From assembly GCF_014698755.1 (NCBI RefSeq), contig NZ_JACJTO010000012.1, forward strand, positions 35,761 through 99,760: 64,000 nt of DNA, given 5' to 3'. This document shows positions 4,882-60,545 of the stretch, piece by piece (position 1 is the stretch's first letter; every line of letters begins with the position of its first letter). The DNA comes from Aphanizomenon flos-aquae FACHB-1287. Its GTDB lineage: Bacteria > Cyanobacteriota > Cyanobacteriia > Cyanobacteriales > Nostocaceae. Position numbers and translations under genes: made by a program. The notes under the pieces were generated by a model that worked only from the letters and a program-made list of their open reading frames with translations, had not been told where the DNA came from and ran no database searches.

Positions 4882-5985
4882 TTGAATCCCGTGATTTTGA
4901 GCCCGTCTGCTGCTAAATCTTATTGCCAACCTTGGCCAGGGCTGATAGAAGCCTATCGTGAATACTTACCTGTCAGCGCGAAAACCCCTGTAGTAACTCT
5001 CTTAGAGGGTAACACACCTTTAATTCCTGTGCCAGCGATCGCTGAACAGATTGGCAGACAGGTTAAGGTGTATGTTAAATATGATGGTCTTAATCCTACT
5101 GGTAGTTTTAAAGACCGAGGGATGACAATGGCAATTTCTAAAGCAGCAGAGTCTGGAGCTAAGGCTGTAATTTGTGCCAGCACTGGTAATACCTCCGCCG
5201 CTGCTGCTGCCTATGCTAAAAGAGGAGGGATGCGTCCCTTTGTGTTAATTCCTGATGGTTATGTAGCTTTGGGAAAGTTGGCACAAGCGCTACTGTATGG
5301 GGCGGAAGTCCTGGCAATTCAGGGCAATTTTGACCGCGCTCTGGAAATTGTCCGGGAAATGGCGGATCAATATCCGATTACGTTGGTAAATTCTGTAAAT
5401 CCGTACCGCTTAGAAGGGCAAAAAACTGGTGCTTTTGAAGTTGTTGATGTTTTAGGTAATGCTCCTGATTGGCTATGTATTCCGGTGGGAAATGCCGGTA
5501 ATATTACAGCATATTGGATGGGTTTTTGTCAATACCATCAACATGGTAAATGCGATCGTCTACCAAAAATGATGGGTTTTCAAGCTGCTGGGGCTGCACC
5601 TTTGGTGAATGGTCAACCTGTGGCACATCCAGAAACCCTGGCTACAGCCATTAGAATTGGTAATCCTGCCAGTTGGTCTCAGGCTATTGCGGCGCAAACG
5701 GCCAGTCAGGGGAGTTTCCGGGCTGTGACTGATGAAGAAATTCTCGATGCTTACAGGCTATTAGCATCATCGGAGGGGATTTTCTGTGAACCTGCTAGTG
5801 CGGCTTCTGTGGCAGGATTATTACAAGTAAAAGATGAAGTTCCCACGGGAGCAACAGTGGTCTGTGTTCTTACTGGTAATGGTTTAAAAGATCCAGATAC
5901 GGCTATTAAACACAGTCATGCTCAGTTTAAACAGGGGATTGCGGCAGATGTAAAAGCTGTTGCAGAAGCCATGGGATTTGCATAA
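4882..5985 (+). CDS. thrC: Threonine synthase
   Basis: This is a PLP-dependent enzyme that converts O-phosphohomoserine to threonine in the aspartate-family amino acid pathway. The lysine that binds PLP lies in [11 protein letters not shown]. The substrate-binding segment [15 protein letters not shown] and the phosphate-loop region [12 protein letters not shown] are also visible. At about 367 residues it matches the short plant/bacterial class of threonine synthases. The start used is TTG 4882. GTG 4891 is an alternative three codons in, and neither has a strong ribosome-binding site. A hairpin follows the stop at 6000-6038. Confidence 0.93.
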
Positions 5986-5999
5986 ATTTTAGACATTGA

Positions 6000-6038
6000 A
6001 ATAAGCGATTTCTGGACAGTGCTTCGCTATCGCTTATT
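6000..6038 (+). terminator. Hairpin after thrC
   Basis: A 10-bp perfect stem (AATAAGCGAT / ATCGCTTATT) with a 19-nt loop lies 15 bp after the thrC stop. The following DNA is moderately T-rich (CATTTGTATTTTT). It is a possible terminator, though the T-run is not immediate. Confidence 0.4.
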
Positions 6039-6164
6039 CTCATTTGTATTTTTCCCCGGTCTAATGAAGCACACACTAATTTATTCCCTGTTCCCTAAGA
6101 TTAAAAAACTCTGTCCCCCACGACCATGGGAAATACCAATTACCTATTCCCAATCCCCAATCAC

Positions 6165-6908
6165 TTATTCCTCAGATTTCTGAGATGGTGGTTTTTGAAA
6201 CACTAAATAAATGTAATATGTAGCCATGGGGATGACGGTAGCGGCAATTAATAACCCGATAACCCAAGCAGTAGCATTACCTTGATTAGTTTCTTCCGCT
6301 TTCGTGAAAGTTCCTTCTACCTTTACCGTTTCCTTAATCTGTGGTGGACCTGGATCTGTTTTACCAGATAAAACCGCAACTAAGCGATCGCTCACATCTG
6401 AGAATCCTTGGTTGTATTTATTACCCTCACGCAATGCTGTACCTAATGTTTCCTCAGCTACACTCTGAGCGATAGAATCAGTTAACAAAGACTTAATCTG
6501 ATCTCCACTAACTAAAGCAGTTCCATTAGTAACAGTATCAACAAGTAATAATACCTGATTAGCTTGTGCTGTTGCGGTAGGAAACCATTTAGTAAATAGT
6601 CCCTTAGCAAAACTTTCCGGTGTTTCCTCGTAGTCGAGACGGTGAATAGTTACAATTCTGGCTTCATAGCCAGTTTCCTGAGCCAAATCCTTGAAAGCCT
6701 TACTAATCTCACCTTCATTCAATCGGCTAATCACATCACCTTGATCTAAAATCCAAGTATCTGCTGTAAAACTGGGCATTTCGTATACACCAGTAGCGGA
6801 AGCAGGTAAAATGAACATCGTACTGGCCATGACCATTACCAATACAGGTAAAATCAGACGGATAAAGAAATTTTGGTTACTAAATAATTGCTTGAGTAAC
6901 TGTTGCAT
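6165..6908 (-). CDS. psb32: TPM-domain protein, Psb32-like
   Basis: A signal/membrane segment near the N-terminus ends in ASA. It is followed by a TPM domain (TWILDQGDVISRLNEGE ... NQVLLLVDTVTNGTALVSG) and a C-terminal membrane helix (WVIGLLIAATVIPMATYYIY). This order matches cyanobacterial Psb32, a thylakoid protein that protects photosystem II from photodamage and speeds its repair. The ATG at 6908 is chosen because AAGGA lies 8-10 bases upstream. An in-frame TTG at 6935 lacks such a site. A TCAGTTG short tandem repeat lies upstream at 6957-6985. The assignment rests on domain order and cyanobacterial context. Confidence 0.8.
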   Translation of the reverse strand: MQQLLKQLFSNQNFFIRLILPVLVMVMASTMFILPASATGVYEMPSFTADTWILDQGDVISRLNEGEISKAFKDLAQETGYEARIVTIHRLDYEETPESFAKGLFTKWFPTATAQANQVLLLVDTVTNGTALVSGDQIKSLLTDSIAQSVAEETLGTALREGNKYNQGFSDVSDRLVAVLSGKTDPGPPQIKETVKVEGTFTKAEETNQGNATAWVIGLLIAATVIPMATYYIYLVFQKPPSQKSEE

Positions 6909-6956
6909 GGGATGAATCCTTAAACAGACTTGCAATCAAAATACTACATAATTAGG

Positions 6957-6985
6957 TCAGTTGTCAGTTGTTAGTTGTCAGTTGG
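6957..6985. repeat. TCAGTTG/TTAGTTG STRR upstream of psb32
   Basis: Four heptamer units of the TCAGTTG type stand in tandem. The same family reappears at 7831-7916, 8287-8334 and 42380-42415. Confidence 0.8.
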
Positions 6986-7125
6986 AAATATCTTTTCCCA
7001 AAGTCCCCTCCTCCGCTACAAACTACGGTCTGCTTTATTTCCTCAATTATCCAGGGGGATATGTGACTTGATACGATAATATGAAATTTAATAAAAGTAA
7101 AAAATCTTTATTTTAGAGAAAGATC

Positions 7126-7830
7126 ATGACAACTTCTACTGCTTTTGACTTAGAATCACTAAATCAGCAATTTGAAATCGCAACTCCCACAGAAATTTTA
7201 GCCTGGTCTGTGCAAAATATCCCCACAGGATTAGTACAAACCAGCGCGTTCAACGTAGATGATGTCATCCTAACACATATTTTCTACAATGTACTTCAGC
7301 ATCCAGTCCCGGTTATTTTCCTTGATACCCTTTATCACTTCCCTCAAACCCTAGAATTGGTTGCTCAAGCCAAGGAAATCTATAATCTAGACTTGAAAAC
7401 CTATAAAACACCAGATGTAGATAGTCGTGAGGCTTTTACTGCTAAATTTGGTGAAGCCCTCTGGGATACAGATATTGCTAAATTCCACGACATTACCAAA
7501 ATTGAACCACTTCTCCGGGGTTTGGACGAATTAGAAACTGTAGCTTGGATTACAGGTCGCCGTCGTGATCAAGCTGTGACTCGTGCTAATATGCCTGTAT
7601 TTGAATTAGATGGTAAAGGGAGATTAAAAATTAACCCTCTAGCTACTTGGACACGCAAACAAAGCTGGGCTTATGTAGCTGAACATAAGGTAATTTACAA
7701 CCCTCTCCATGACGAAGGTTATCCTAGTATTGGTGACGAACCTATTACCACCAAGGTCGCTGACGGTGAAGACGAACGTGCTGGACGTTGGAGAGGAAGT
7801 GAAAAAACTGAGTGTGGAATTCACATTTAG
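7126..7830 (+). CDS. cysH: Phosphoadenylyl-sulfate (PAPS) reductase
   Basis: The enzyme reduces PAPS to sulfite with thioredoxin during assimilatory sulfate reduction in the cytosol. The N-terminal PP-loop-like fold is recognised from SAFNVDDVILTH, followed by VIFLDTLYHFPQTLEL and WITGRRRDQAVTR. The C-terminal ECGIH carries the redox-active cysteine. The two extra Cys pairs of the Fe-S type (APS reductases) are absent, which favours the PAPS class. At 234 residues the length is normal. The ATG at 7126 has AGAGAAAG upstream. The DNA beyond the stop is an STRR block. Confidence 0.93.
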   Translation: MTTSTAFDLESLNQQFEIATPTEILAWSVQNIPTGLVQTSAFNVDDVILTHIFYNVLQHPVPVIFLDTLYHFPQTLELVAQAKEIYNLDLKTYKTPDVDSREAFTAKFGEALWDTDIAKFHDITKIEPLLRGLDELETVAWITGRRRDQAVTRANMPVFELDGKGRLKINPLATWTRKQSWAYVAEHKVIYNPLHDEGYPSIGDEPITTKVADGEDERAGRWRGSEKTECGIHI

Positions 7831-7916
7831 TTAGTTGTCGGTGGTTAGTTGTTAGTGGTTAGTTGTTAGTGGTCAGTGGTCAGTTGTTAGTGGTCAGTGG
7901 TCAGTTGTTAGTTGAA
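7831..7916. repeat. STRR block, left flank of four-helix gene
   Basis: Tandem heptamers of the TTAGTTG/TTAGTGG/TCAGTGG type fill the whole gap between cysH and the next gene. The block at 8287-8334 carries the reverse-complement type, so the gene between them is bracketed by inverted repeats. Confidence 0.85.
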
Positions 7917-7919
7917 AAA

Positions 7920-8303
7920 ATGGCGAAATCCAACTTTGAGAATTTGCAAGTTTATCAATTAGCAGAGAAACTAGCTGATCAAATTTGGAATATCATTCTT
8001 CATTGGGAGGAGTTTCCTAAAGCAACAATTGGTAAGCAGTTAGTACGTTCTGCTGATAGTATTGGCGCAAATATTGCAGAAGGTTGTGGAAGATACAATT
8101 TTCAGGATAATCGCCGTTTCGTTAGGATAGCAAGAGGTTCTTTAAATGAAACTAGGCATTGGTTAAGAAGAGCTTATAAACGAAATTTATTAACTAATGA
8201 AGAAGTAAATAGGCTAAAACCAATCATTGATGAACTGTCTCCCAGGTTAAACGCCTATCTTAACTCCATTGGTAACATTTCAGAAAGAACAAAGAACAAC
8301 TGA
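7920..8303 (+). CDS. Four-helix bundle protein (S23/IVP-like)
   Basis: This protein of about 127 residues has the family pattern FENLQVYQLAEKLADQIW ... GKQLVRSADSIGANIAEGCG ... SLNETRHWL. The family includes proteins encoded in 23S rRNA intervening sequences and relatives of the Avd accessory protein of diversity-generating retroelements. Family members bind nucleic acid, but the role here is unknown. The ATG at 7920 is chosen because the longer frame upstream (from 7863) only translates the repeat. The last codons and the stop lie in the right-hand repeat. No rRNA or reverse transcriptase is nearby. Confidence 0.85.
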   Translation: MAKSNFENLQVYQLAEKLADQIWNIILHWEEFPKATIGKQLVRSADSIGANIAEGCGRYNFQDNRRFVRIARGSLNETRHWLRRAYKRNLLTNEEVNRLKPIIDELSPRLNAYLNSIGNISERTKNN

Positions 8304-8334
8304 CCACTGACCACTGACAAAGAACAACTGACAA
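8287..8334. repeat. STRR block, right flank of four-helix gene
   Basis: The units AACAACTGACCACTGACC are the reverse complement of the repeat at 7831-7916. The block supplies the C-terminal codons and stop of the four-helix gene and ends only 3 bp before the sbcD start codon. Confidence 0.85.
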
Positions 8335-8337
8335 ACT

Positions 8338-9603
8338 ATGAAAATTCTTCATCTTTCAGATATCCATATTGGTAGCGGTTTTTCCCACGGACGCGTTAAT
8401 CCAGCTACAGGTTTAAATACACGACTAGAGGATTTTGTCAAAACATTATCTTTATGTATTGACCGAGCGATCGCTGATCATGTAGACTTGGTTTTATTTG
8501 GTGGTGATGCTTTCCCGAACGCCACACCAGCACCCTATATTCAAGAAGCTTTTGCTAATCAATTTCGGCGTTTGGTAGCTGCTGATATTCCTACTGTATT
8601 ATTAGTGGGAAATCATGACCAGCATTCCCAAGGTGTGGGAGGTGCTAGTTTAAATATTTACCGGACTTTGGGTGTACCTGGGTTTGTGGTTGGTGATACT
8701 TTAACTACTCATCGTCTCTCTACCCGTAACGGAGATGTGCAAATAATTACTCTTCCTTGGCTAACTCGTTCTACCTTAATGACCCGTCAAGAGACTCAAG
8801 GTTCTTCTCTAGCAGAAGTAAACCAACTCCTTACAGACCGTTTACAGGTGGTTATAGAAGGAGAAATTCGCCGGCTTGACCCGCATATACCAACGGTGCT
8901 TTTAGCCCATTTAATGGCTGATAATGCTACTTTAGGAGCAGAACGTTTATTGGCTGTGGGGAAAGGTTTTACTTTACCTTTATCTTTATTAACTCGACCA
9001 TGTTTTGATTATGTGGCTTTAGGTCATGTCCATAGGCATCAAAACCTAAATAAATCTAATGACCCACCGGTAATTTATCCCGGAAGTATTGAACGGGTGG
9101 ATTTTAGCGAGGAGAAGGAAGATAAAGGTTATGTCATGATAGATTTAGAACGGGGAAAGGTAAATTGGGAATTTTGTCCCCTACCTGTGCGAACGTTTCG
9201 GACTATTGAGGTAGATTTATCTAAGCAAGATGATCCCCAAAAGGCATTATTAAAAGGAATTGGTAAATATGATATTCAAGATAATGTAGTGCGATTAATT
9301 TACAAATTGCGGTCAGAACAATTGGATTTAATTGATAACTCTTCCTTACACCAAGCTTTAAGTATAGCACACACTTACACTATTCAAGCTGAATTAGTTA
9401 GTCAATTAGCAAAGCCCCGCATTCCCGAATTAACTGCTAGTAGTAGTATTGACCCAATGGAAGCTTTAAAAACTTACTTAAATAATCGGGAAGACTTAAA
9501 AGATATTATGTCACCTATGTTGGAAGCAGCACAAAATTTATTAGCAAATGATGAGGAAATTTGCTTAGAACCTGAAGCAAGAAATCAAAAGTTAAAAGTC
9601 TAA
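8338..9603 (+). CDS. sbcD: SbcD/Mre11-type DNA repair exonuclease
   Basis: This is a calcineurin-fold metallophosphoesterase of the Mre11/SbcD family, acting on DNA ends and hairpins together with an SbcC/Rad50-type ATPase. Metal-binding motifs are visible: LHLSDIHIG (near residue 4), LVLFGGDAF (near 58), VGNHDQH (near 92), LLAHLM and ALGHVHRHQ. At 421 residues the length is normal. No sbcC lies next to it in this window. The last codons and the DNA just after the stop repeat AAAGTTAAAAGTC, so a short tandem repeat has contributed the C-terminal residues. The upstream STRR may carry its expression signals. Confidence 0.9.
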   Translation: MKILHLSDIHIGSGFSHGRVNPATGLNTRLEDFVKTLSLCIDRAIADHVDLVLFGGDAFPNATPAPYIQEAFANQFRRLVAADIPTVLLVGNHDQHSQGVGGASLNIYRTLGVPGFVVGDTLTTHRLSTRNGDVQIITLPWLTRSTLMTRQETQGSSLAEVNQLLTDRLQVVIEGEIRRLDPHIPTVLLAHLMADNATLGAERLLAVGKGFTLPLSLLTRPCFDYVALGHVHRHQNLNKSNDPPVIYPGSIERVDFSEEKEDKGYVMIDLERGKVNWEFCPLPVRTFRTIEVDLSKQDDPQKALLKGIGKYDIQDNVVRLIYKLRSEQLDLIDNSSLHQALSIAHTYTIQAELVSQLAKPRIPELTASSSIDPMEALKTYLNNREDLKDIMSPMLEAAQNLLANDEEICLEPEARNQKLKV

Positions 9604-9655: not shown

Positions 9656-10147
9656 TTATCTATTTAATCTATTTTGCCAATTGGTAATAGCTCGCAAATA
9701 TGCCATAATAGGAATTTGATAAACTTCAATAAAAATCCAAACAATAATTCCTAAATGTGACAAAAAAGTTAACACAGTCCAAACCAATGGAATCCATGAG
9801 AGGGGAACATGAGAGCGAGGAGGAAAATAATATGCTGTTACCCCTATTAAAGTGGTTGGTAAAATAATAAAAGCAATTGCAGATAAACCATAACCCCAAC
9901 CTAATTCCACATTTTCTAATCGTGCTTGTGTCCACGTAAATCCATTCCAATTCCAAATTAAAGGTGGTTCTCTAGAAGGCATTTTAACCTGTTGTAATTC
10001 TAGGTTAACTGTGAAAATTTCGTTACAAAAATCACAGCACATAGCCTCCATCATTAACATTTGAGAAATTTTACCAACGCGACATATTGGACATGGATAA
10101 TCTTCTTGAAAGTTTAAAGCTGTGGACAAAATTGGAGATTTGGGCAT
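9656..10147 (-). CDS. Zinc-ribbon plus two-TM hypothetical protein
   Basis: This 163-residue protein has an N-terminal zinc-ribbon-like region: CPIC (about residues 18-21), then CCDFC (about 37-41). Two membrane segments follow (GLSAIAFIILPTTLIGVTAYY and WTVLTFLSHLGIIVWIFIEV). The order zinc ribbon then membrane hairpin suggests a membrane-tethered protein with a cytoplasmic metal site. I do not recognise the family. The ATG at 10147 is preceded by AAAAAAGGAG on the coding strand, a good ribosome-binding site. Confidence 0.65.
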   Translation of the reverse strand: MPKSPILSTALNFQEDYPCPICRVGKISQMLMMEAMCCDFCNEIFTVNLELQQVKMPSREPPLIWNWNGFTWTQARLENVELGWGYGLSAIAFIILPTTLIGVTAYYFPPRSHVPLSWIPLVWTVLTFLSHLGIIVWIFIEVYQIPIMAYLRAITNWQNRLNR

Positions 10148-32101: not shown

Positions 32102-32130
32102 CATTTAAGGGTTACAGAAAATTATTAAGT

Positions 32131-32453
32131 CAGAATCAGGATAACCAGGATTTAAGGATTAACAGGATGGTAGTTTATAGATGGTTTAAATTATTCAAGA
32201 ACAATCATTCAAAAACATCCTGAAAAATCCCCAAGTTCCAAAAAACAATCATCCAAAAACATCCTGTAAATCCTCAAATCCTGGAAATCCTGATTCAGAC
32301 AAAAAAATCACCAACTCCCACCAAAAATCATCCAACAACATCCTGAAAATCCTCAAATCCTGGAAATCCTGATTCAGACAAATAAAATCACCAACTCCCA
32401 CCAAAAATCATCCAATAACATCCTGTAAATCCTCAAATCCTGGACATCATTTA
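32131..32453. repeat. AGGAT-phased dispersed repeats, first cluster
   Basis: There is one forward copy (32131-32170, CAGAATCAGGATAACCAGG onward) and three reverse copies starting near 32260, 32339 and 32419, the last shortened. The reverse copies form a direct array with a period of about 79-80 bp. The core holds AGGAT (or ATCCT) at 8-9-bp spacing. The same family fills 54.8-58.4 kb. It occupies the gap between the kinase and the small antitoxin gene. Confidence 0.88.
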
Positions 32454-54640: not shown

Positions 54641-54660
54641 TAAGTTATATAGAGTTTTAG

Positions 54661-54774
54661 TGAAATAAAAGCTAGTTCCGTTTTTGCACCTGACTTAAGA
54701 TTTAAGACAATTAATGGAATTAGGTAAAAATTAATGATTTGAGAAAAAGAATTAGCTGATCGTAGGGGTGGAAT
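54661..54774 (+). repeat. Mosaic copy of downstream toxin-antitoxin DNA
   Basis: Three segments abut: 54661-54697 matches 56131-56167 (inside higB, one mismatch), 54698-54744 matches 57567-57613 (leader and start of the antitoxin, about five mismatches), and 54743-54774 matches 57795-57826 exactly (end of the same antitoxin gene). Their order is the same as in the downstream region, so this is a deleted duplicate. Confidence 0.85.
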
Positions 54775-54775
54775 G

Positions 54776-54918
54776 TAACTGTATTTTATAGTCTTCAAAT
54801 CTCACGAACAATTTATCAATAACAATCCTGTAAATCCTATAATCCTGGATATCCTGATTCAGACAATTACAATTTCAGCATCCCACCAATAACTTACAAA
54901 TAACAATCCTGTAAATCC
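54776..54918 (-). repeat. AGGAT-phased repeats, left flank of GxxExxY gene
   Basis: Copies in ATCCT orientation (AATCCTGTAAATCCTATAAT onward, near 54824) precede the gene, and a partial copy runs up to the ATG. The part before it (CTGTATTTTATAGTCTTC) matches 55617-55690, so the full unit is longer than the AGGAT core. Confidence 0.85.
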
Positions 54919-55320
54919 ATGAACACAAGTAATACCCAAAATCTAAAATTAGACGAAATTACATATATAATCAATGGATGTGCAATGAAAATACACCGAA
55001 CTTTGGGAAACGGTTTTCAGGAGGTTATTTATCAAAGATGTATGGAAATTGAGTTGCAAAAATCAGGTTTAGGTTTTGGAAGGGAGGCGGAACAAGTAAT
55101 TTATTATGAGGGAATTGAAGTAGGAACAAGAAGGGCGGATTTTATAGTTGAAAATCAGGTTGTGGTGGAGTTGAAAGCGGTTATTTCTTTAGAAGATGTT
55201 CATTTAGCGCAAGCGAAAAATTATTTGGTAGCTTATAATTTTCCTGTTGGTTTATTGATTAATTTTGGTGGGTTGAAGTTGGAATATAAGAAGGTTTTTA
55301 ATCCTAGATTTCAGGGTTAA
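54919..55320 (+). CDS. GxxExxY protein (PD-(D/E)XK nuclease superfamily)
   Basis: This 133-residue protein has the name-giving motif GFQEVIY (32-38) and the PD-(D/E)XK core: Asp74 in RRADFIV and Glu84/Lys86 in VVVELKA. The family is widespread, and its nuclease fold is inferred from these residues. The biological role is unknown. The ATG lies at the end of a repeat copy (CCTGTAAATCC just before it), and the downstream side carries opposite-orientation copies starting at 55324, so the gene is bracketed by inverted repeats. There is no clear ribosome-binding site beyond the repeat. Confidence 0.88.
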   Translation: MNTSNTQNLKLDEITYIINGCAMKIHRTLGNGFQEVIYQRCMEIELQKSGLGFGREAEQVIYYEGIEVGTRRADFIVENQVVVELKAVISLEDVHLAQAKNYLVAYNFPVGLLINFGGLKLEYKKVFNPRFQG

Positions 55321-55525
55321 TTTGTCTGAATCAGGATTTCCAGGATTAGAGGATTTTCAGGATGTTGTTGTTTATTTGCAGTGGGGATTTGAGGATTTTA
55401 ATTGTCTGAATCAGGATAACCAGGATTATAGGATTTACATGATGTGGTTTTTTATTTGAAGTGGGGATTTTGAGGATGTTTTTTGTCTGAATCAGGATAA
55501 CCAGGATTTAAGGATTTTCAGGATG
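55321..55525 (+). repeat. AGGAT-phased repeats, right flank of GxxExxY gene
   Basis: Three forward copies begin near 55324, 55404 and 55485 (TGTCTGAATCAGGAT...), with a period of about 80 bp. Each has three or four AGGAT words at 8-9-bp spacing, separated by about 38 bp of similar spacer ending TTGAAGTGGGGATTT. Confidence 0.88.
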
Positions 55526-55616
55526 TAGTTGTTTGATTGTCTATAAAATGTAGAGATTTTGGGATGATAGATAAGTTATCAGTTAAATTATCCGCTGTTA
55601 ATTCTTGACTATTACT

Positions 55617-55812
55617 GTAACTGGATTTTATAATCTTCAAATCTTCACAGACAATTTATCAAGAACAATCCTGTACATCCTAAAATCCTGGACATCCTGA
55701 TTCTGACAATTACAATTTCAGCATCCCATCAACAACCTACAAATTACCATCCTGTACATCCTAAAATCCTGGATATCCTGATTCTGACAATTAAAATTTC
55801 AGCATCTCACCA
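55617..55812 (-). repeat. AGGAT-phased repeats upstream of higBA
   Basis: Two reverse copies (about 55666-55708 and 55748-55790), period about 81 bp, each followed by ACAATTACAATTTCAGCATC-like spacer. The lead segment matches that at 54776. Confidence 0.85.
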
Positions 55813-56014
55813 ATACTTTTAGTGATTTGTACGTAAGCCATAAGAGTAAAAAAAATTAAGTAAAATAATTATAAATTAAATACTTGCTTTTAAATTCGCA
55901 TTTTGCTAAGATTATTTTACAGCCTTTTTAAGGCCTTTTAATTAATTCACTTAGAACTAATGTAAGAGGTAAGTATGATGTTGATTGCAAAATGTAGAGG
56001 AAAACCATACATAT

Positions 56015-56323
56015 ATGCGGATTATTTCAGAAACCAAACTTAAAAAAGCTTGTGAAAAGCACTCTGATGCCGAATTTAGCATACAAGCCTGGAAGAAGCT
56101 TGTAAAGGAGCAAGACTGGAAGAGTCCTAATGAAATAAAAGCTACTTCCGTTTTTGCACCTGACTTAGTTAAAAACTTTGTTATTTTTGACATTGGAGGA
56201 AATAAGTATCGGTTAATAACTTGTATTAACTATAAAACCAAAGTCATATATATCCGTGATTTTCTCACTCATGCAGAATATGATAGAGATAAATGGAAAG
56301 ATGATCAATGGTTTAATAGCTAA
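56015..56323 (+). CDS. higB: HigB-family mRNA interferase toxin
   Basis: This 102-residue toxin of the HigB (RelE-superfamily) type has KLKKACEKHSDAEFSIQAWK, FDIGGNKYRLITCINYKTK and VIYIRDFLTHAEYDRDKW. HigB cleaves mRNA, often on the ribosome. ATG 56015 is preceded by AGAGGAAA at a 12-base distance; a TTG 30 bp upstream is unlikely. The antitoxin follows, the reverse of the usual antitoxin-first order but normal for higBA. A 37-bp piece of this gene is copied at 54661. Confidence 0.88.
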   Translation: MRIISETKLKKACEKHSDAEFSIQAWKKLVKEQDWKSPNEIKATSVFAPDLVKNFVIFDIGGNKYRLITCINYKTKVIYIRDFLTHAEYDRDKWKDDQWFNS

Positions 56324-56430
56324 TACTAATGAGGATTGATGAATTAGGTAAAACTAAGATTGGTATTATTCAATCTTAGTCCTAATATTTTTAGTCCTAA
56401 TATTTAAGCAAATAATACCATAATGAACGA

Positions 56431-56862
56431 ATGTTGAATCATCACAGCAGCTATACACAATTACTTGTATCTTTCCCCCCACGTCCTATAAAGAATGAAG
56501 AAGATTTAGAAAAAATTCAAGCAGTTGTTGATAATCTACTTGACCAGGGGGAACTAACAGAGGAAGAAGAAGACTATTTGGATTTACTGGGAATTTTAAT
56601 TTATGAATATGAGGAAAAACAAAATCTGATTCCAGATATCTATGGAGTAGAACTTTTAAAAGTTTTAATTGCGGAATTAAATCTGAAACAAAAAGATTTA
56701 GTTCCTATTTTTAAAACAGAGTCAATTGTTTCCGATGTACTTAAAAACAAGCGTAAATTAACAGTTGAACATATTGAAAAGCTGGCAAAGTTTTTTAATG
56801 TTTCAGTCGCTGTATTCTTTCCAAAAAATCCATCAGAAAGAGATTTTTTAGAAGTAGCATAA
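56431..56862 (+). CDS. higA: HigA-like antitoxin
   Basis: This 143-residue protein has an acidic N-terminal half (EEDLEKIQAVVDNLLDQGEL) and a C-terminal helix-turn-helix (LNLKQKDLVPIFKTESIVSD, then LTVEHIEKLAKFFNVSVAVF) typical of HigA antitoxins, which repress their operon. It lies 107 bp after higB, wider than usual, so it may have its own promoter. ATG 56431 is used. Confidence 0.85.
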   Translation: MLNHHSSYTQLLVSFPPRPIKNEEDLEKIQAVVDNLLDQGELTEEEEDYLDLLGILIYEYEEKQNLIPDIYGVELLKVLIAELNLKQKDLVPIFKTESIVSDVLKNKRKLTVEHIEKLAKFFNVSVAVFFPKNPSERDFLEVA

Positions 56863-56891
56863 TGCACTATTTCAATAACAAAATCAAAACC

Positions 56892-56919
56892 GTGCGTTAC
56901 ATTTCATTCATTAACGCAC
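56892..56919. repeat. GTGCGTTA...TAACGCAC inverted repeat
   Basis: An 8-bp stem with a 12-base loop lies between convergent genes. This is a common dispersed palindrome type in cyanobacteria and may stop transcription from both sides. Confidence 0.6.
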
Positions 56920-56920
56920 C

Positions 56921-57133
56921 CTACAATATTTCTGGTAATTCCAAATCTTCAAAATTGGCAAAGCGTTTTTCAATCAGAGTTGCTAAATTAATCGGATTTT
57001 GAGGATTTTCTGTGAGAACAAGACGGAGCATTTCTGTAATTTCTTGTTCTAGAGAATGTCCATGTTTTTCGGCTAGTTTTTGTAACTGATTTTGCAGATC
57101 ATCATCAAGGTTAGAGATTGTAATATTAGTCAT
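56921..57133 (-). CDS. FitA/VapB-like ribbon-helix-helix antitoxin, orphan
   Basis: This 70-residue protein has a typical FitA/Arc start, NITISNLDDDLQNQLQKLAE, and KHGHSLEQEITEMLR, a DNA-binding ribbon-helix-helix that represses a toxin-antitoxin operon. The PIN toxin normally encoded just downstream is absent: the next DNA is the palindrome and the end of higA on the other strand. ATG 57133 is used. Confidence 0.75.
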   Translation of the reverse strand: MTNITISNLDDDLQNQLQKLAEKHGHSLEQEITEMLRLVLTENPQNPINLATLIEKRFANFEDLELPEIL

Positions 57134-57188
57134 AATTAATTTAAAGTTAAAGGATATGTTTATTGTACACTATTAATCTGATTTTTTT

Positions 57189-57230
57189 GTCTGAATCAGG
57201 ATATCCAGGATTTTAGGATTTACAGGATGT
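57189..57230 (+). repeat. AGGAT-phased repeat, single copy
   Basis: GTCTGAATCAGGATATCCAG onward, with four AGGAT-type words. It lies 37 bp before the next gene and probably contains part of its control region. Confidence 0.88.
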
Positions 57231-57266
57231 TATAATATTTATAAACTTTCACCAACATATACAGTT

Positions 57267-57497
57267 ATGGCGATCGCTATTTCCCTAACTCCAGAACTAG
57301 AAGCAAGACTACGCGAAAAAGCAACCCAACAAGGAAAAGATATCAGTTTAGTTGCGGCTGAATTATTAACAAATATCCTAGATTGGGAATTAGAAGATTC
57401 AAAAGCAGCTATTCAAGGTATTCAGCAAGGATTAGAAGATTTTGAAGCAGGTCGCTTTCGGTCTTTTGATGATTTTGCAAAAAGAACAACGTCGTAA
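57267..57497 (+). CDS. Small antitoxin-like protein with frameshifted end
   Basis: This 76-residue protein has SLTPELEARLREKATQQGKD, a ribbon-helix-helix type start, then EAGRFRSFDDFAKRTTS. At an A-run (57479-57483) the frame appears shifted by one base: removing one A gives DDFAKEQRRKYNLVQDV and a stop at 57522, the usual end of such antitoxins. It is thus either a recent frameshift or a sequencing error. A HIP1 octamer overlaps the start codon region. No toxin follows directly. Confidence 0.65.
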   Translation: MAIAISLTPELEARLREKATQQGKDISLVAAELLTNILDWELEDSKAAIQGIQQGLEDFEAGRFRSFDDFAKRTTS

Positions 57498-57602
57498 ATA
57501 TAACCTGGTTCAAGATGTATAAAATCATGGTTTAATTTGATGTGAGATTTGCTATTATTGAAAATAAGGTTTAAGACAATTAACTGAATTAGGTAAAAAT
57601 CA

Positions 57603-57845
57603 ATGATTTCAGAACAAGAATTATTAACAAAGTGGCGATCATTACCCCAGGATAAACAACAGGAAGTCTTAAAATTTGTGGAACTTATGCAATTGAAAAC
57701 CACAGCAAAAAAACCTCCTTTGGGGGAACGTTTGCGAGAAATTCGCTCTAAAATTGTTGCATCTGGTAAACCTTTATTAAATGCAGATGAAATAGAAAAA
57801 GAATTAGCTGATCGTAGGGGTGGAATCCAAGGTAGAGAAGAATGA
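57603..57845 (+). CDS. VapB-like antitoxin of a PIN pair
   Basis: This 80-residue protein has a helical N-terminus (MISEQELLTKWRSLPQDKQQ) like DUF2281-type antitoxins and a basic, flexible C-terminus (EKELADRRGGIQGREE) that would wrap the toxin. Its stop overlaps the PIN gene start by 4 bp (ATGA), indicating translational coupling. Parts of its leader and its 3' end are copied at 54698-54774. Confidence 0.75.
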   Translation: MISEQELLTKWRSLPQDKQQEVLKFVELMQLKTTAKKPPLGERLREIRSKIVASGKPLLNADEIEKELADRRGGIQGREE

Positions 57846-58246
57846 TTATAACTTATATTGATTCGGGTGTGTTATTGAGTGCAACCAATGGTAATGGTTT
57901 AATTGCAGAAAAAGCATTAGAAATACTATCAGACTCACACCGGGTATTTGCTGCTAGTGAGTTTGTCAGATTGGAGGTAAGTCCTAAAGCAGTTTATCAT
58001 CAGCAAACGGAAGAATCTCAATTTTATGAAGAGTTTTTTAATGATGTTATTTACTGGGCAAATGATTTAACTTATATTGTACAAGAGGCTTATAAAATTG
58101 CTTCTCGGTATGGATTAGCTGCTATGGATGCACTTCATGTAGCTGCTGCTTTTTCTGTTGGTGCTGAGGAGTTAATTACTACTGAGAAGAAAACAAAACC
58201 TATGCACAAAGTAGTTGGTATTAAAGTAATTTCTATTTTTGATTAG
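57842..58246 (+). CDS. PIN-domain (VapC-like) toxin
   Basis: This 134-residue PIN ribonuclease has an acidic metal site: Asp7 in TYIDSGVLL, Glu in FVRLEVSPK, and Asp in AAMDALHVAAA, with a C-terminal ELITTEKKTKPMHKV. PIN toxins cut tRNA or rRNA when the antitoxin is lost. It is translationally coupled to the antitoxin. A forward AGGAT repeat begins 11 bp after its stop, as it does after the GxxExxY gene. Confidence 0.85.
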   Translation: MIITYIDSGVLLSATNGNGLIAEKALEILSDSHRVFAASEFVRLEVSPKAVYHQQTEESQFYEEFFNDVIYWANDLTYIVQEAYKIASRYGLAAMDALHVAAAFSVGAEELITTEKKTKPMHKVVGIKVISIFD

Positions 58247-58256
58247 GATGTTTTTT

Positions 58257-58444
58257 GTCTGAATCAGGATAACCAGAATTAGAGGATGTACAGGATGTAA
58301 TTTTTTTATTGTTTAGGAAAAATGGCAATTTTTGGATGATAGATAATATACTGTGATTGTAATTATCATTTTTCAATATTCACAGACAATTCACCAATAA
58401 CAATCCTGTACATCCTAAAATCCTGGACATCCTCATTCAGACAA
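58257..58444. repeat. AGGAT-phased repeats in both orientations
   Basis: A forward copy lies at 58257-58299 and a reverse copy at about 58402-58442, with a 55617-like lead (ACAGACAATTCACCAATAAC) between them. No gene lies inside. Confidence 0.85.
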
Positions 58445-58748: not shown

Positions 58749-60545
58749 ATGCGAAGAGAACACTCTATTAGTGACGAAACTTTAAATAAACTTCTGTATG
58801 AACTGCAAAATAACAATATTTTTGCTTTAGTTGGTGAAAATATGAGCGGCAAGACGGAATTAATGAGAAAATTTAGAGACTCTAAAAAATACCTTCGAGA
58901 AAACATTGAATTTTTAACATTGCATATAGAATTACCTTTAAACCAATATCTTATTAGTCATAATGATAAACCATCAGAAACTATTCGTTCTGATGAAGTC
59001 ATCAAAATAGTAGATAAAATTCAAAACATTAATTCAATATCACCTAATGATGATATTTTAAAATCAATAATAGCCAATGTTAATGAATCTTTAAGGATAT
59101 TTCATGGAAATAAGGTTGATATTATTTTTGCAATATCTTTGATTATACAAATTAATTTACACACACTCGCATTACTACTGCTACTAGACTACAAAAATCT
59201 AAAAGTAATAATAAGAGAAATAGAACCTAAGAAAGAACGGACAAAAAGGCCATTAAACCAGGTCATTAGAACTACTTTAGGCATTAATATTGAAGATTTA
59301 GATAATATACCTCCAGAAGATTTAAATAATTTACATGAATGTATTCTTGATTTAATAAAAAAGTCTAATTTCAAAATTAATAATGTAAACAATGATCAAA
59401 TAAATCAGGTTAAAAAATGTATTAAAGTAGTATTTAATGGTAGAAGCGAGGTAAGTTTAACACAAGCAAGCGCAGGATTAGGTGTTTTAGTCTCATTGAT
59501 TTTTGTGATAGAAGCTATTTCATATTTTCAAAATATAAACTGTCTTTTGTTAATAGACGAACCTGAAGCATATTTACATCCAGCTTGGCAGAAAGAATTA
59601 ATCAAATATTTGCAAAAAAAATCCAATGAAAGAATAAATATTATGTTTTCAACCCATTCTCAACATTTAATACTTACAGATAAGTTAGATTCTATAGGTT
59701 TAGTAAAGTATAGTGATAAAAAAATTGATTTTGAAAAACTTTTTGATAATATTCCTTTTATAAACCCACAAAAGGATAGGGAATTAAATATATTAAAACC
59801 TATTGAAGATGCTCTTGGAATTGAATTAAATATTTTCTCTACTCCGTTTATAACTGTAGAAGGTGAAGAAGAAATGATGTTATTTTCATATCTTTTTCCG
59901 AAATTTACATCTCAAATTCCGCCCAGAATTATTAATCTACATGGTAAAGATAATTTGATACCATATATCCTTCTTTCCAAAATATACGAAGAGCAAAATA
60001 AGGGAATAAAAAGTGTTTTTGTATTAGATGCTGATGTAGATTTTCGTTCAGCAATTAAGCACATAGAAAAACGTAAAGAAGCAATAATTAAATTACAAAA
60101 TCGCTTTATTTTTATCGGAAAAAAACTGTATGATTTCCAAGAACTATATCCTAACAATGATCTGACAAAACATACAGGTAACGAGGAATGCTTAGAGGAT
60201 TTCTTTGCAGTAAAAATTCTAGGACAAAACAATCAAGATGGATATAAAGAAATAAAACAAATTACAAAATATTTAGTTAACCAAATACAAGATGAAATTT
60301 TAGTAAATAAATTGATACCTATTATAGAAAATAAAAATGTAACTAAATTTAAGGATATAACAAGTATTATTGGACAAAGTATTAAAACTCCTTTTTCTTC
60401 CAGTGATCCTGAAATATACAATCAAAAACAATTAGTTCAGAAAATAAAAGAATTAGTGTTAAAGAAAGTATTAGAAGAAGAAGATAAATTAGAGAATATT
60501 AGATTTCTCATAAATCAAATTCGTCAAAAAATTACTCAGCTTTAA
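58749..60545 (+). CDS. OLD-like AAA ATPase with TOPRIM nuclease domain
   Basis: This 598-residue protein begins with an ABC/SMC-type ATPase: Walker A GENMSGKT (29-36), a signature-like QASAGLGVLVSL, Walker B LLLIDEPEAYLHP (from 266) and an H-loop MFSTHSQHL. A TOPRIM domain follows: Glu371 in TVEGEEE and the DxD at 427-429 in VLDADVD. This order is that of OLD-family nucleases, several of which defend against phage alone or with a partner (for example Gabija GajA). It is strikingly A/T- and Lys/Ile/Asn-rich compared with its neighbours, suggesting transfer. No GajB-like helicase is next to it. ATG 58749 has only a weak AAGGAT site. Confidence 0.85.
   Translation: MRREHSISDETLNKLLYELQNNNIFALVGENMSGKTELMRKFRDSKKYLRENIEFLTLHIELPLNQYLISHNDKPSETIRSDEVIKIVDKIQNINSISPNDDILKSIIANVNESLRIFHGNKVDIIFAISLIIQINLHTLALLLLLDYKNLKVIIREIEPKKERTKRPLNQVIRTTLGINIEDLDNIPPEDLNNLHECILDLIKKSNFKINNVNNDQINQVKKCIKVVFNGRSEVSLTQASAGLGVLVSLIFVIEAISYFQNINCLLLIDEPEAYLHPAWQKELIKYLQKKSNERINIMFSTHSQHLILTDKLDSIGLVKYSDKKIDFEKLFDNIPFINPQKDRELNILKPIEDALGIELNIFSTPFITVEGEEEMMLFSYLFPKFTSQIPPRIINLHGKDNLIPYILLSKIYEEQNKGIKSVFVLDADVDFRSAIKHIEKRKEAIIKLQNRFIFIGKKLYDFQELYPNNDLTKHTGNEECLEDFFAVKILGQNNQDGYKEIKQITKYLVNQIQDEILVNKLIPIIENKNVTKFKDITSIIGQSIKTPFSSSDPEIYNQKQLVQKIKELVLKKVLEEEDKLENIRFLINQIRQKITQL

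What the first reader, a model, noticed from the sequence alone, without database searches (positions are those of the whole stretch)
54776..58444. GxxExxY nuclease gene embedded in AGGAT-phased inverted repeats
A PD-(D/E)XK-family gene (54919-55320) has reverse-orientation copies of a roughly 42-bp repeat on its left, running up to its start codon, and forward copies beginning 3 bp after its stop. The repeat has AGGAT words at 8-9-bp spacing and occurs at least ten more times nearby, spaced about 80 bp in local arrays, flanking each toxin-antitoxin module and another orphan antitoxin at 32.1-32.5 kb. A nuclease gene bounded by inverted copies of a dispersed repeat is what one expects of a homing or REP/RAYT-like system. 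That the protein acts on the repeat is inference.
Basis: partly seen in the sequence, partly recalled or inferred. Interest (0 to 1): 0.75.

Follow-up and report, generated by a model that had tools for sequence, protein, structure and literature searches.

The report
Mobile nuclease gene with cognate repeats
A tiny nuclease gene found in many bacteria is usually bracketed by inverted copies of a repeat whose short "word" differs between gene lineages and changes together with the gene; gene and repeats come and go at one chromosomal site among related cyanobacteria, so they likely form a minimal mobile element in which the nuclease is predicted to act on its own repeats.

Summary
GxxExxY gene 54919-55320 lies among AGGAT-phased repeats, 13 in the window. 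The host genome has 73 copies but two GxxExxY genes. In other genomes, mostly Bacteroidota, 75 of 80 related genes have the repeat within 500 bp. A motif-free test finds inverted flanks at 119 of 150 GxxExxY genes against 4 of 600 control positions. Gene lineages carry different phased words (AGGAT, AGAAT, TGATT, CGGATT, GCAAAG, GCAGAG, ACGAAG), and the word follows the protein tree across host families. At one conserved site in 41 related genomes the cassette is present (17), inverted (4), reduced (4) or absent (16; 8 with gaps of 45 bp or less); there the word fits the gene tree (1 change), not the host tree (7). The organisation is REPIN/RAYT-like, but the enzyme is a predicted Cas4/RecB-like PD-(D/E)XK nuclease. 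That it acts on the repeats is inferred. Against: 6 of 13 high-copy cyanobacterial genomes lack the matching subfamily; no clean empty site for gene-less copies was found among fetched loci.

The parts
54919..55320 (+). GxxExxY gene, PD-(D/E)XK nuclease of the QRC subfamily (motif GFQEVIYQRCM), 133 aa
   Evidence: fold
54825..54865 (-). repeat arm (TGTCTGAATC + four phased AGGAT words), upstream of the gene
54905..54918 (-). partial reverse arm abutting the start codon
   Evidence: sequence; repeat D3
55323..55363 (+). repeat arm starting about 2 bp after the stop codon
55403..55443 (+). repeat arm, tandem copy (80 bp step)
55484..55524 (+). repeat arm; left arm of the inverted doublet 55484-55708
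   Evidence: hairpin fold z -6.5
55668..55708 (-). repeat arm; right arm of that doublet
55749..55789 (-). repeat arm, tandem copy
57188..57228 (+). single repeat arm between antitoxin genes
58256..58296 (+). left arm of a gene-less inverted doublet after the PIN toxin gene
   Evidence: hairpin fold z -7.2
58403..58443 (-). right arm of that doublet
32128..32168 (+). left arm of a gene-less cluster
32261..32301 (-). right arm of that cluster
32340..32380 (-). repeat arm, tandem copy
32420..32450 (-). degenerate repeat arm (31-mer core, 1 mismatch)

Best explanation
The GxxExxY gene and the word-phased inverted repeats beside it likely form one small mobile element, in which the encoded nuclease, predicted to have a Cas4/RecB-like fold, would recognise its own repeat word and process the repeats as folded hairpins. 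Shown by comparison: inverted arms flank most of the family's genes examined; different gene lineages carry different words; the two arms, and largely the words within an arm, change together with the protein; and gene plus arms have replaced one another at one chromosomal site while relatives have the site empty or the gene inverted. Also shown: gene-less arms occur as inward-facing doublets at many places in the window's genome, and the two doublets folded predict strong hairpins. Inferred: the nuclease binds the words as a modular array, cuts at single-stranded hairpins during replication or transfer, and mobilises both its own cassette and the gene-less doublets, with host repair completing insertion. 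In the window this produced an array of arms among toxin-antitoxin genes, where arm edges also coincide with synteny breakpoints.
For: Arms near genes: 75 of 80 loci (score 21 or more of 33, within 500 bp), 52 of 80 as + upstream / - downstream. At score 23 or more, in the 78 loci left after dropping two near relatives of the window's genome: 200 hits in 77 kb near the genes, 19 in 775 kb far away, reversed decoy 0 in both. An unbiased 8-mer test on the same 78 loci recovers the repeat. Motif-free inverted flanks: 119 of 150 against 4 of 600 positions; against other 100-200 aa ORFs in the same loci, 55 of 79 against 6 of 351. Same phased 5-mer on both sides: 98 of 150 against 4 of 600. Subfamily specificity: AGGAT/AGAAT arms at 8 of 8 QRC genes and 1 of 64 others. 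Concerted words: between-arm correlation 0.90 and within-arm excess, 0 of 5000 shuffles (41 of 80 loci usable); GCAGAG/GCAAAG 0.875, 0 of 5000, in 23 loci. Word tracks protein across host families: 3 changes against 10.7 shuffled, 0 of 500 (35 loci). Site states in 41 genomes; word changes 1 on the gene tree, 7 on the flank tree (20 loci). Nuclease: E35, D74, E84, K86 invariant in 73 sequences, Q98 and Y102 at 90% or more; model pLDDT 90.9; best fold match SSO0001, a Cas4 ssDNA exonuclease by PMC3466216 (passages). Doublets. Breakpoints at arm edges: 35 of 107 against 6.6 expected.
Against: No binding, cutting or movement has been assayed. Six of 13 cyanobacterial genomes with 10 or more AGGAT copies (G072, G127, G149, G155, G030, G087) have no QRC gene among the matches classified, only other GxxExxY subfamilies (one G155 fragment was not classified); these need loss of the gene or cross-action. 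G097, without any GxxExxY match, holds 6 copies. No clean empty site was found for gene-less AGGAT doublets among the fetched loci and no target-site duplication was evident by eye. 31 of 150 loci did not pass the inverted-flank test. Words are not always uniform: 13 of 46 sides mix GCAGAG and GCAAAG, and some words (GCAAAG, CAGAG) occur in two subfamilies. The word tree has few well-supported branches (2 of 32 starred). A PD-(D/E)XK nuclease has no known strand-transfer activity (recalled), so insertion needs another factor. Exchange at the shared site could be homologous recombination of imported DNA using arms as homology. In the window the gene's left side has only reverse copies, so the simple + gene - cassette is not intact there.
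Confidence: 0.6

Rival explanations
1. Homing endonuclease: the gene spreads by cutting gene-free alleles at a specific site; repair copies the cassette in, and the arms are passengers or a boundary.
For: Empty, occupied and replaced alleles at one site. PD-(D/E)XK folds occur among homing endonucleases (recalled).
Against: The eight short empty sites carry no repeat word, yet word and protein co-vary. Arms number 6-611 in the eight QRC-bearing cyanobacterial genomes, far more than their genes. Four genomes have the gene inverted, which copying by flank homology alone does not give.
Confidence: 0.14
2. Passive repeats: the arms are old terminator-like or MITE-like repeats moved by another transposase or by host recombination, and the nuclease gene only happens to sit in them.
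For: Most copies in the window's genome lie far from its two GxxExxY genes. Six high-copy genomes lack the matching subfamily. Arm edges coincide with synteny breakpoints.
Against: Arms are about 100-fold denser beside the gene than elsewhere in the same loci. Words match protein lineage rather than host. No transposase among the 20 of 47 arm-adjacent ORFs examined. The five Y1_Tnp matches in the genome are broken or partial and on contigs without arms.
Confidence: 0.13
3. Regulatory or addiction-like system: the protein binds arms as operators or self-marks to control itself and neighbouring genes such as the toxin-antitoxin genes, without mobility.
For: Arms lie against start and stop codons and around TA genes in the window. 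The catalytic residues could serve binding.
Against: Catalytic residues are invariant in 73 sequences. Replacement, inversion and loss at one site fit a mobile unit. Arms elsewhere flank unrelated genes. No PADLOC match for the gene.
Confidence: 0.08

Closest known systems
REPIN / RAYT (REPtron, TnpA-REP with REP/BIME repeats)
   Same: Short repeats in inverted doublets and tandem clusters, dispersed between genes, beside a cognate nuclease gene with which they co-evolve (PMC3116915: abstract, outline and passages; PMC8266576: abstract, outline and introduction).
   Different: The enzyme is PD-(D/E)XK, not HUH with a catalytic tyrosine. The arm is a phased word array, not itself a GTAG-tagged palindrome. 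Here gene plus arms are exchanged as a unit at a site, whereas that introduction states there is no evidence of tnpA-REP mobility.
Cas4 / RecB-type nucleases
   Different: 133 aa against about 200, no cysteine among the conserved columns for an Fe-S cluster; CRISPR context not looked for.
Rpn (recombination-promoting nuclease, PF04754)
   Same: Small nuclease linked to DNA mobilisation (PMC5350276: start of abstract in the listing; the PD-(D/E)XK fold is recalled).
   Different: Different family; no cognate flanking repeats described in what I saw.
Homing endonuclease genes
   Same: Occupied and empty alleles of one site.
   Different: Gene lies between its own inverted repeats, not in an intron or intein, and gene-less repeats are dispersed.
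MITEs of DDE transposons
   Same: Gene-less inverted repeats of roughly 100-330 bp (arm gaps 33-247 bp).
   Different: Associated protein is a nuclease with no known strand transfer; no target duplication seen by eye.

Membership tests
GxxExxY / PDDEXK_3 (TIGR04256, PF13366) | Profile match above the curated cut-off | tested here: met
   129.6 bits against cut-off 35; 126.6 against 22
PD-(D/E)XK nuclease, RecB/Cas4 branch | Invariant acidic residues, ExK and QxxxY | tested here: met
   E35, D74, E84, K86 invariant; Q98 and Y102 at 90% or more in 73 sequences
PD-(D/E)XK nuclease, RecB/Cas4 branch | Fold | tested here: met
Cas4 proper | Four conserved Fe-S cysteines | tested here: not met
   No cysteine among invariant or 90% columns of A2
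REPIN/RAYT (REPtron) | HUH (Y1) nuclease encoded beside the repeats | tested here: not met
   Gene is PF13366; Y1_Tnp matches in the genome are broken or partial, on contigs without arms
REPIN/RAYT (REPtron) | Repeats in inverted doublets predicted to form hairpins | tested here: met
   +- 15, -+ 0 of 32 adjacent pairs; two doublets folded, z -7.2 and -6.5
REPIN/RAYT (REPtron) | Repeat abundance tracks presence of the cognate gene | tested here: inconclusive
   All 8 QRC genomes have copies, but 6 of 13 high-copy genomes lack a classified QRC gene
REPIN/RAYT (REPtron) | Each repeat a GTAG-tagged palindrome | tested here: not met
   Consensus TGTCTGAATC + phased AGGAT words
REPIN/RAYT (REPtron) | Cleavage of single-stranded repeat by the protein | not testable with these tools
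   No assay
Homing endonuclease gene | Inserted at its own recognition site, empty alleles cleavable | tested here: inconclusive
   Empty alleles exist but carry no repeat word; cleavage untested
DDE transposon or MITE | Transposase near or between terminal repeats | tested here: inconclusive
   No transposase in the 20 of 47 arm-adjacent ORFs tested; 27 not tested, no genome-wide search for DDE families
DDE transposon or MITE | Target-site duplication | tested here: inconclusive
   None evident by eye at the shared site; no formal test

The most novel reading that the evidence does not exclude
GxxExxY proteins define a whole class of minimal mobile elements: one Cas4/RecB-like PD-(D/E)XK nuclease plus inverted arms built from 9-bp-phased words, with a lineage-specific word that the protein reads as a modular array. 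This would explain at a stroke the CAGGATTnnCAGGAT-, CGCAAAGgCGCAAAG- and CACGAAGgACACGAAG-type repeats seen here as the gene-bearing and gene-less forms of one system, a counterpart of REPIN/RAYT that arose from an unrelated enzyme and whose gene is itself mobile.
Probability: 0.42. Interest if true: 0.93.

Novelty: new variant of a known kind. Interest (0 to 1): 0.84.

Why it matters
This gives it a testable substrate and role, links several unexplained repeat classes to one enzyme family, and offers a ready code experiment: paired proteins and words that differ by one base at every unit. If cutting is shown, it would be a second, independent origin of the nuclease-plus-dispersed-hairpin way of life known from REPIN/RAYT, with a small nuclease and a visible history of gain, loss and inversion. 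Text searches of the held open-access library for the family names and for the repeat strings, and for cyanobacterial dispersed repeats, showed by title and start of abstract no paper on the repeats or on this association. The word GxxExxY occurs in 2 papers, and the passages seen mention it only in passing. Supplements and most subscription journals were not searched.

Tried and rejected
RAYT as mover: the own genome has five Y1_Tnp matches at three places, with stops or partial, on contigs without arms. Known RNA family: no Rfam match at the gathering threshold in 31900-60000. Known defence gene: no PADLOC match for the nuclease. Solved relatives by sequence: none at E 1 or below. One AGGAT repeat for the whole family: rejected, since 64 cyanobacterial loci of other subfamilies have 1 arm in all within 600 bp of the gene. 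A lag-9 autocorrelation test was weak (20 of 150 above the control 99th percentile), presumably because words are spaced 8-10 bp and only partly alike; the phased-word test replaced it. Empty sites for gene-less AGGAT doublets: intergenic DNA between species of the genus was too diverged or rearranged, and joining flanks gave mostly matches of a cluster to itself; one candidate (L159 against L167) was not resolved. The L042 query and the window query showed shuffled blocks, used only for the breakpoint count. That count may be inflated, because repeated arms themselves can end alignments. HsdS-like upstream genes with repeat-encoded tails were seen by reading only.

Rows dropped before counts: one search used 46 of 80 loci with both arms at 25 or more of 33, then the 41 with only A/G at the word position. 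One search used 35 of those 46 (nearly uniform words). One search used 72 of the 85 matches listed, leaving out the 13 weakest. One search used 150 of 152 loci (flanks of at least 120 bp). One search used 23 of the 72 cyanobacterial loci. One search used 41 of the 80 searched genomes, those for which I had fetched both flanks (44 of 50 loci, duplicates removed); its 'arm words only' class includes G231, which has 885 bp of other sequence, and G213, with a 14-residue gene remnant, is counted as absent. One search used 20 of 21 loci with a gene (L252 had no intact ORF; L254 and L270 are short). and the score table left out two loci, L053 and L054. The HMM used was built from the 80 loci only.
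Full report
What is there. The window is part of a 4.35-Mb cyanobacterial genome in 85 contigs. The closest named proteins and loci are from Dolichospermum and Anabaena (P0011, 91% identical; L053 and L054). Gene 54919-55320 encodes a 133-aa GxxExxY protein. Around it lie arms of consensus TGTCTGAATC-AGGAT-NNNC-AGGAT-TNN-AGGAT-NNNC-AGGAT. The window holds 13 matches to the 31-position core, with none expected by chance. The genome holds 73 (36 and 37 on the two strands), with 0 for the reversed control, but only two GxxExxY genes. Arms occur in clusters. Of 32 adjacent pairs 250 bp or less apart in the window and 20 fetched own-genome loci, 15 point inward (+-), none outward, 8 are ++ and 9 --. 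Two window doublets folded as ssDNA give z-scores of -7.2 and -6.5.

The association holds in other phyla. I collected 80 related genes from other genomes (the best 80 of 578 confirmed, themselves from a capped list), mostly Bacteroidota, with some cyanobacteria, Pseudomonadota and others. 75 of 80 have an arm within 500 bp and 52 have + upstream with - downstream (score 21 or more of 33). At score 23 or more, in the 78 loci left after dropping two near relatives of the window's genome, there are 200 hits in 77 kb near genes and 19 in 775 kb farther than 3 kb, with 0 decoys in either. At score 21 the decoy count near genes is 11 against 223, so the 75 is slightly generous. An 8-mer enrichment test without any motif, on the same 78 loci, returns GATTCAGA, CTGAATCA, ATTCAGAC, AAATCCTG, AATCCTGA and ATCAGGAT as the top words. 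Homologs P0045, P0088 and P0109 even carry what reads as the translated repeat (ESGLT-LKD) in a C-terminal tail (A1).

Different gene lineages carry different words. In 72 cyanobacterial loci, AGGAT/AGAAT arms occur within 600 bp of 8 of 8 genes with motif GFQEVIYQRC and of 1 of 64 others. But the others have phased inverted repeats of their own, read: TGATT or CGGATT for GFQEVIYQRA; GCAAAG, GCAGAG, GCTAAG or ACGGAG for GLLES-type; ACGAAG, CACAGAG, GCAAAG or GCAGAT for GFLE-type. Some words thus recur in two subfamilies. Two tests that assume no motif agree. Upstream flank against reverse-complemented downstream flank scores above the control 99th percentile at 119 of 150 genes against 4 of 600 random positions, and above the same score at 55 of 79 against 6 of 351 other small ORFs in the loci. 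The same 5-mer recurring at 7-10 bp on both sides, on opposite strands, occurs at 98 of 150 genes against 4 of 600 positions.

Words change in concert and with the protein. Among 41 usable loci, the four words of an arm tend to be all AGGAT or all AGAAT, and the two arms agree (correlation 0.90); column shuffles never reach this in 5000 tries. In the GCAGAG/GCAAAG class (23 loci) the two sides correlate at 0.875, 0 of 5000 permutations, although 13 of 46 sides mix both words. On the protein tree of 35 loci, the AGGAT/AGAAT label needs 3 changes against a shuffled mean of 10.7, 0 of 500; the tree has only 2 starred branches of 32. Label and host part company: Mucilaginibacter and Saprospiraceae occur in both word groups, and a Methylomonas copy sits in the AGGAT group.

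Gain, loss, inversion and replacement at one site. The genome's own second GxxExxY gene (GLFES type, GCAGAG arms by reading) lies between two conserved genes. Across 41 genomes of the same family for which I had both flanks, 17 have the gene in the same direction, 4 have it inverted, 1 has a partial gene, 3 have only arm words, 8 have a gap of 45 bp or less, and 8 have other sequence. The arm word is GCAGAG-type for one clade of genes and GCAAAG-type for the rest. It needs 1 change on the gene tree but 7 on the tree of the flanking DNA, about as many as shuffled labels. Flank sisters L248/L254 and L246/L281, and the flank trio L243/L245/L261, carry different cassette types or orientations. So gene and arms travel together and independently of the chromosome around them. 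Whether by a dedicated reaction or by recombination of imported DNA is not shown.

Mechanism. I take the view that the nuclease reads the phased words, probably as an array of monomers about 9 bp apart, acts on hairpins formed by inverted arms in single-stranded DNA, and so moves its own cassette and the gene-less doublets. The co-variation of word and protein, the doublet geometry and the site history support recognition and mobility. Binding, cutting and the strand-transfer step are inference. The closest analogue is REPIN/RAYT, whose defining HUH enzyme is not the gene here.

Results against. Genome counts are only partly in step. All 13 cyanobacterial genomes with 10 or more copies carry GxxExxY, and 4 of 154 genomes without a match have 1-6 copies. 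But 6 of the 13 have no QRC gene among the classified matches, and 21 of 40 gene-bearing genomes have no AGGAT copies, as expected if they carry other words. No clean empty site for gene-less doublets was found among the fetched loci. In the window itself the left side of the gene has only reverse copies and abuts a vapB-like remnant (54742-54774, identical to 57794-57826), so the local cassette is rearranged. Synteny breakpoints near arm edges, 35 of 107 against 6.6 expected, show that arms also act, or appear, as recombination points.

Noticed in passing
L052:9036-9076 and 10018-10058; L048:5380-5420 and 6317-6357; L033:8476-8516; L046:955-995; L047:4912-4952 (own genome): A short foreign segment (GATAGCGAAGCGTGGCGTAGCCATA-like) is inserted at the same point inside the arm, between TGTCTGA and ATCAGGAT; it resembles the cyanobacterial small dispersed repeats of Elhai 2008 (recalled; title seen only in a reference list). 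A repeat nested in a repeat.
   Followed up: no
window 54742-54774 and 57794-57826: A 33-bp stretch of the vapB-like gene is duplicated exactly at the left edge of the GxxExxY cluster, and 54651-54697 duplicates part of the HigB gene (91%), marking old rearrangements.
   Followed up: no
window 58749-60545: AAA ATPase gene next to the cluster resembles Old/GajA-type defence ATPases (PADLOC E 4e-18); the HigB gene at 55985-56323 matches PD-Lambda-2_A.
   Followed up: no
L052:4954-9076 (own genome C4): A 4.1-kb segment with two dynamin/GTPase-like genes is bracketed by inverted arms; in G196 the homologous segment aligns from 4953 to 9069, that is, from arm to arm, like a passenger cassette.
   Followed up: partly
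L055, L056, L072, L084, upstream of the gene: The upstream gene, HsdS-like by reading, seems to have its 3' end replaced by the repeat, which is then translated as a tail; not family-tested.
   Followed up: no
G064 C1:312359-313157: A run of at least 9 near-identical matches at 81-bp steps in a related genome with 611 copies, a large tandem expansion.
   Followed up: no
L059, L094: Arms with longer spacing between words (AGGAT-aaaa-TACAG-att-...) beside QRC genes, a possible further word grammar.
   Followed up: no
L262, L264 (G250, G211): Two of the short empty sites hold a small palindrome-like remnant that looks like the two outer arm ends joined, as if left by excision (read).
   Followed up: no
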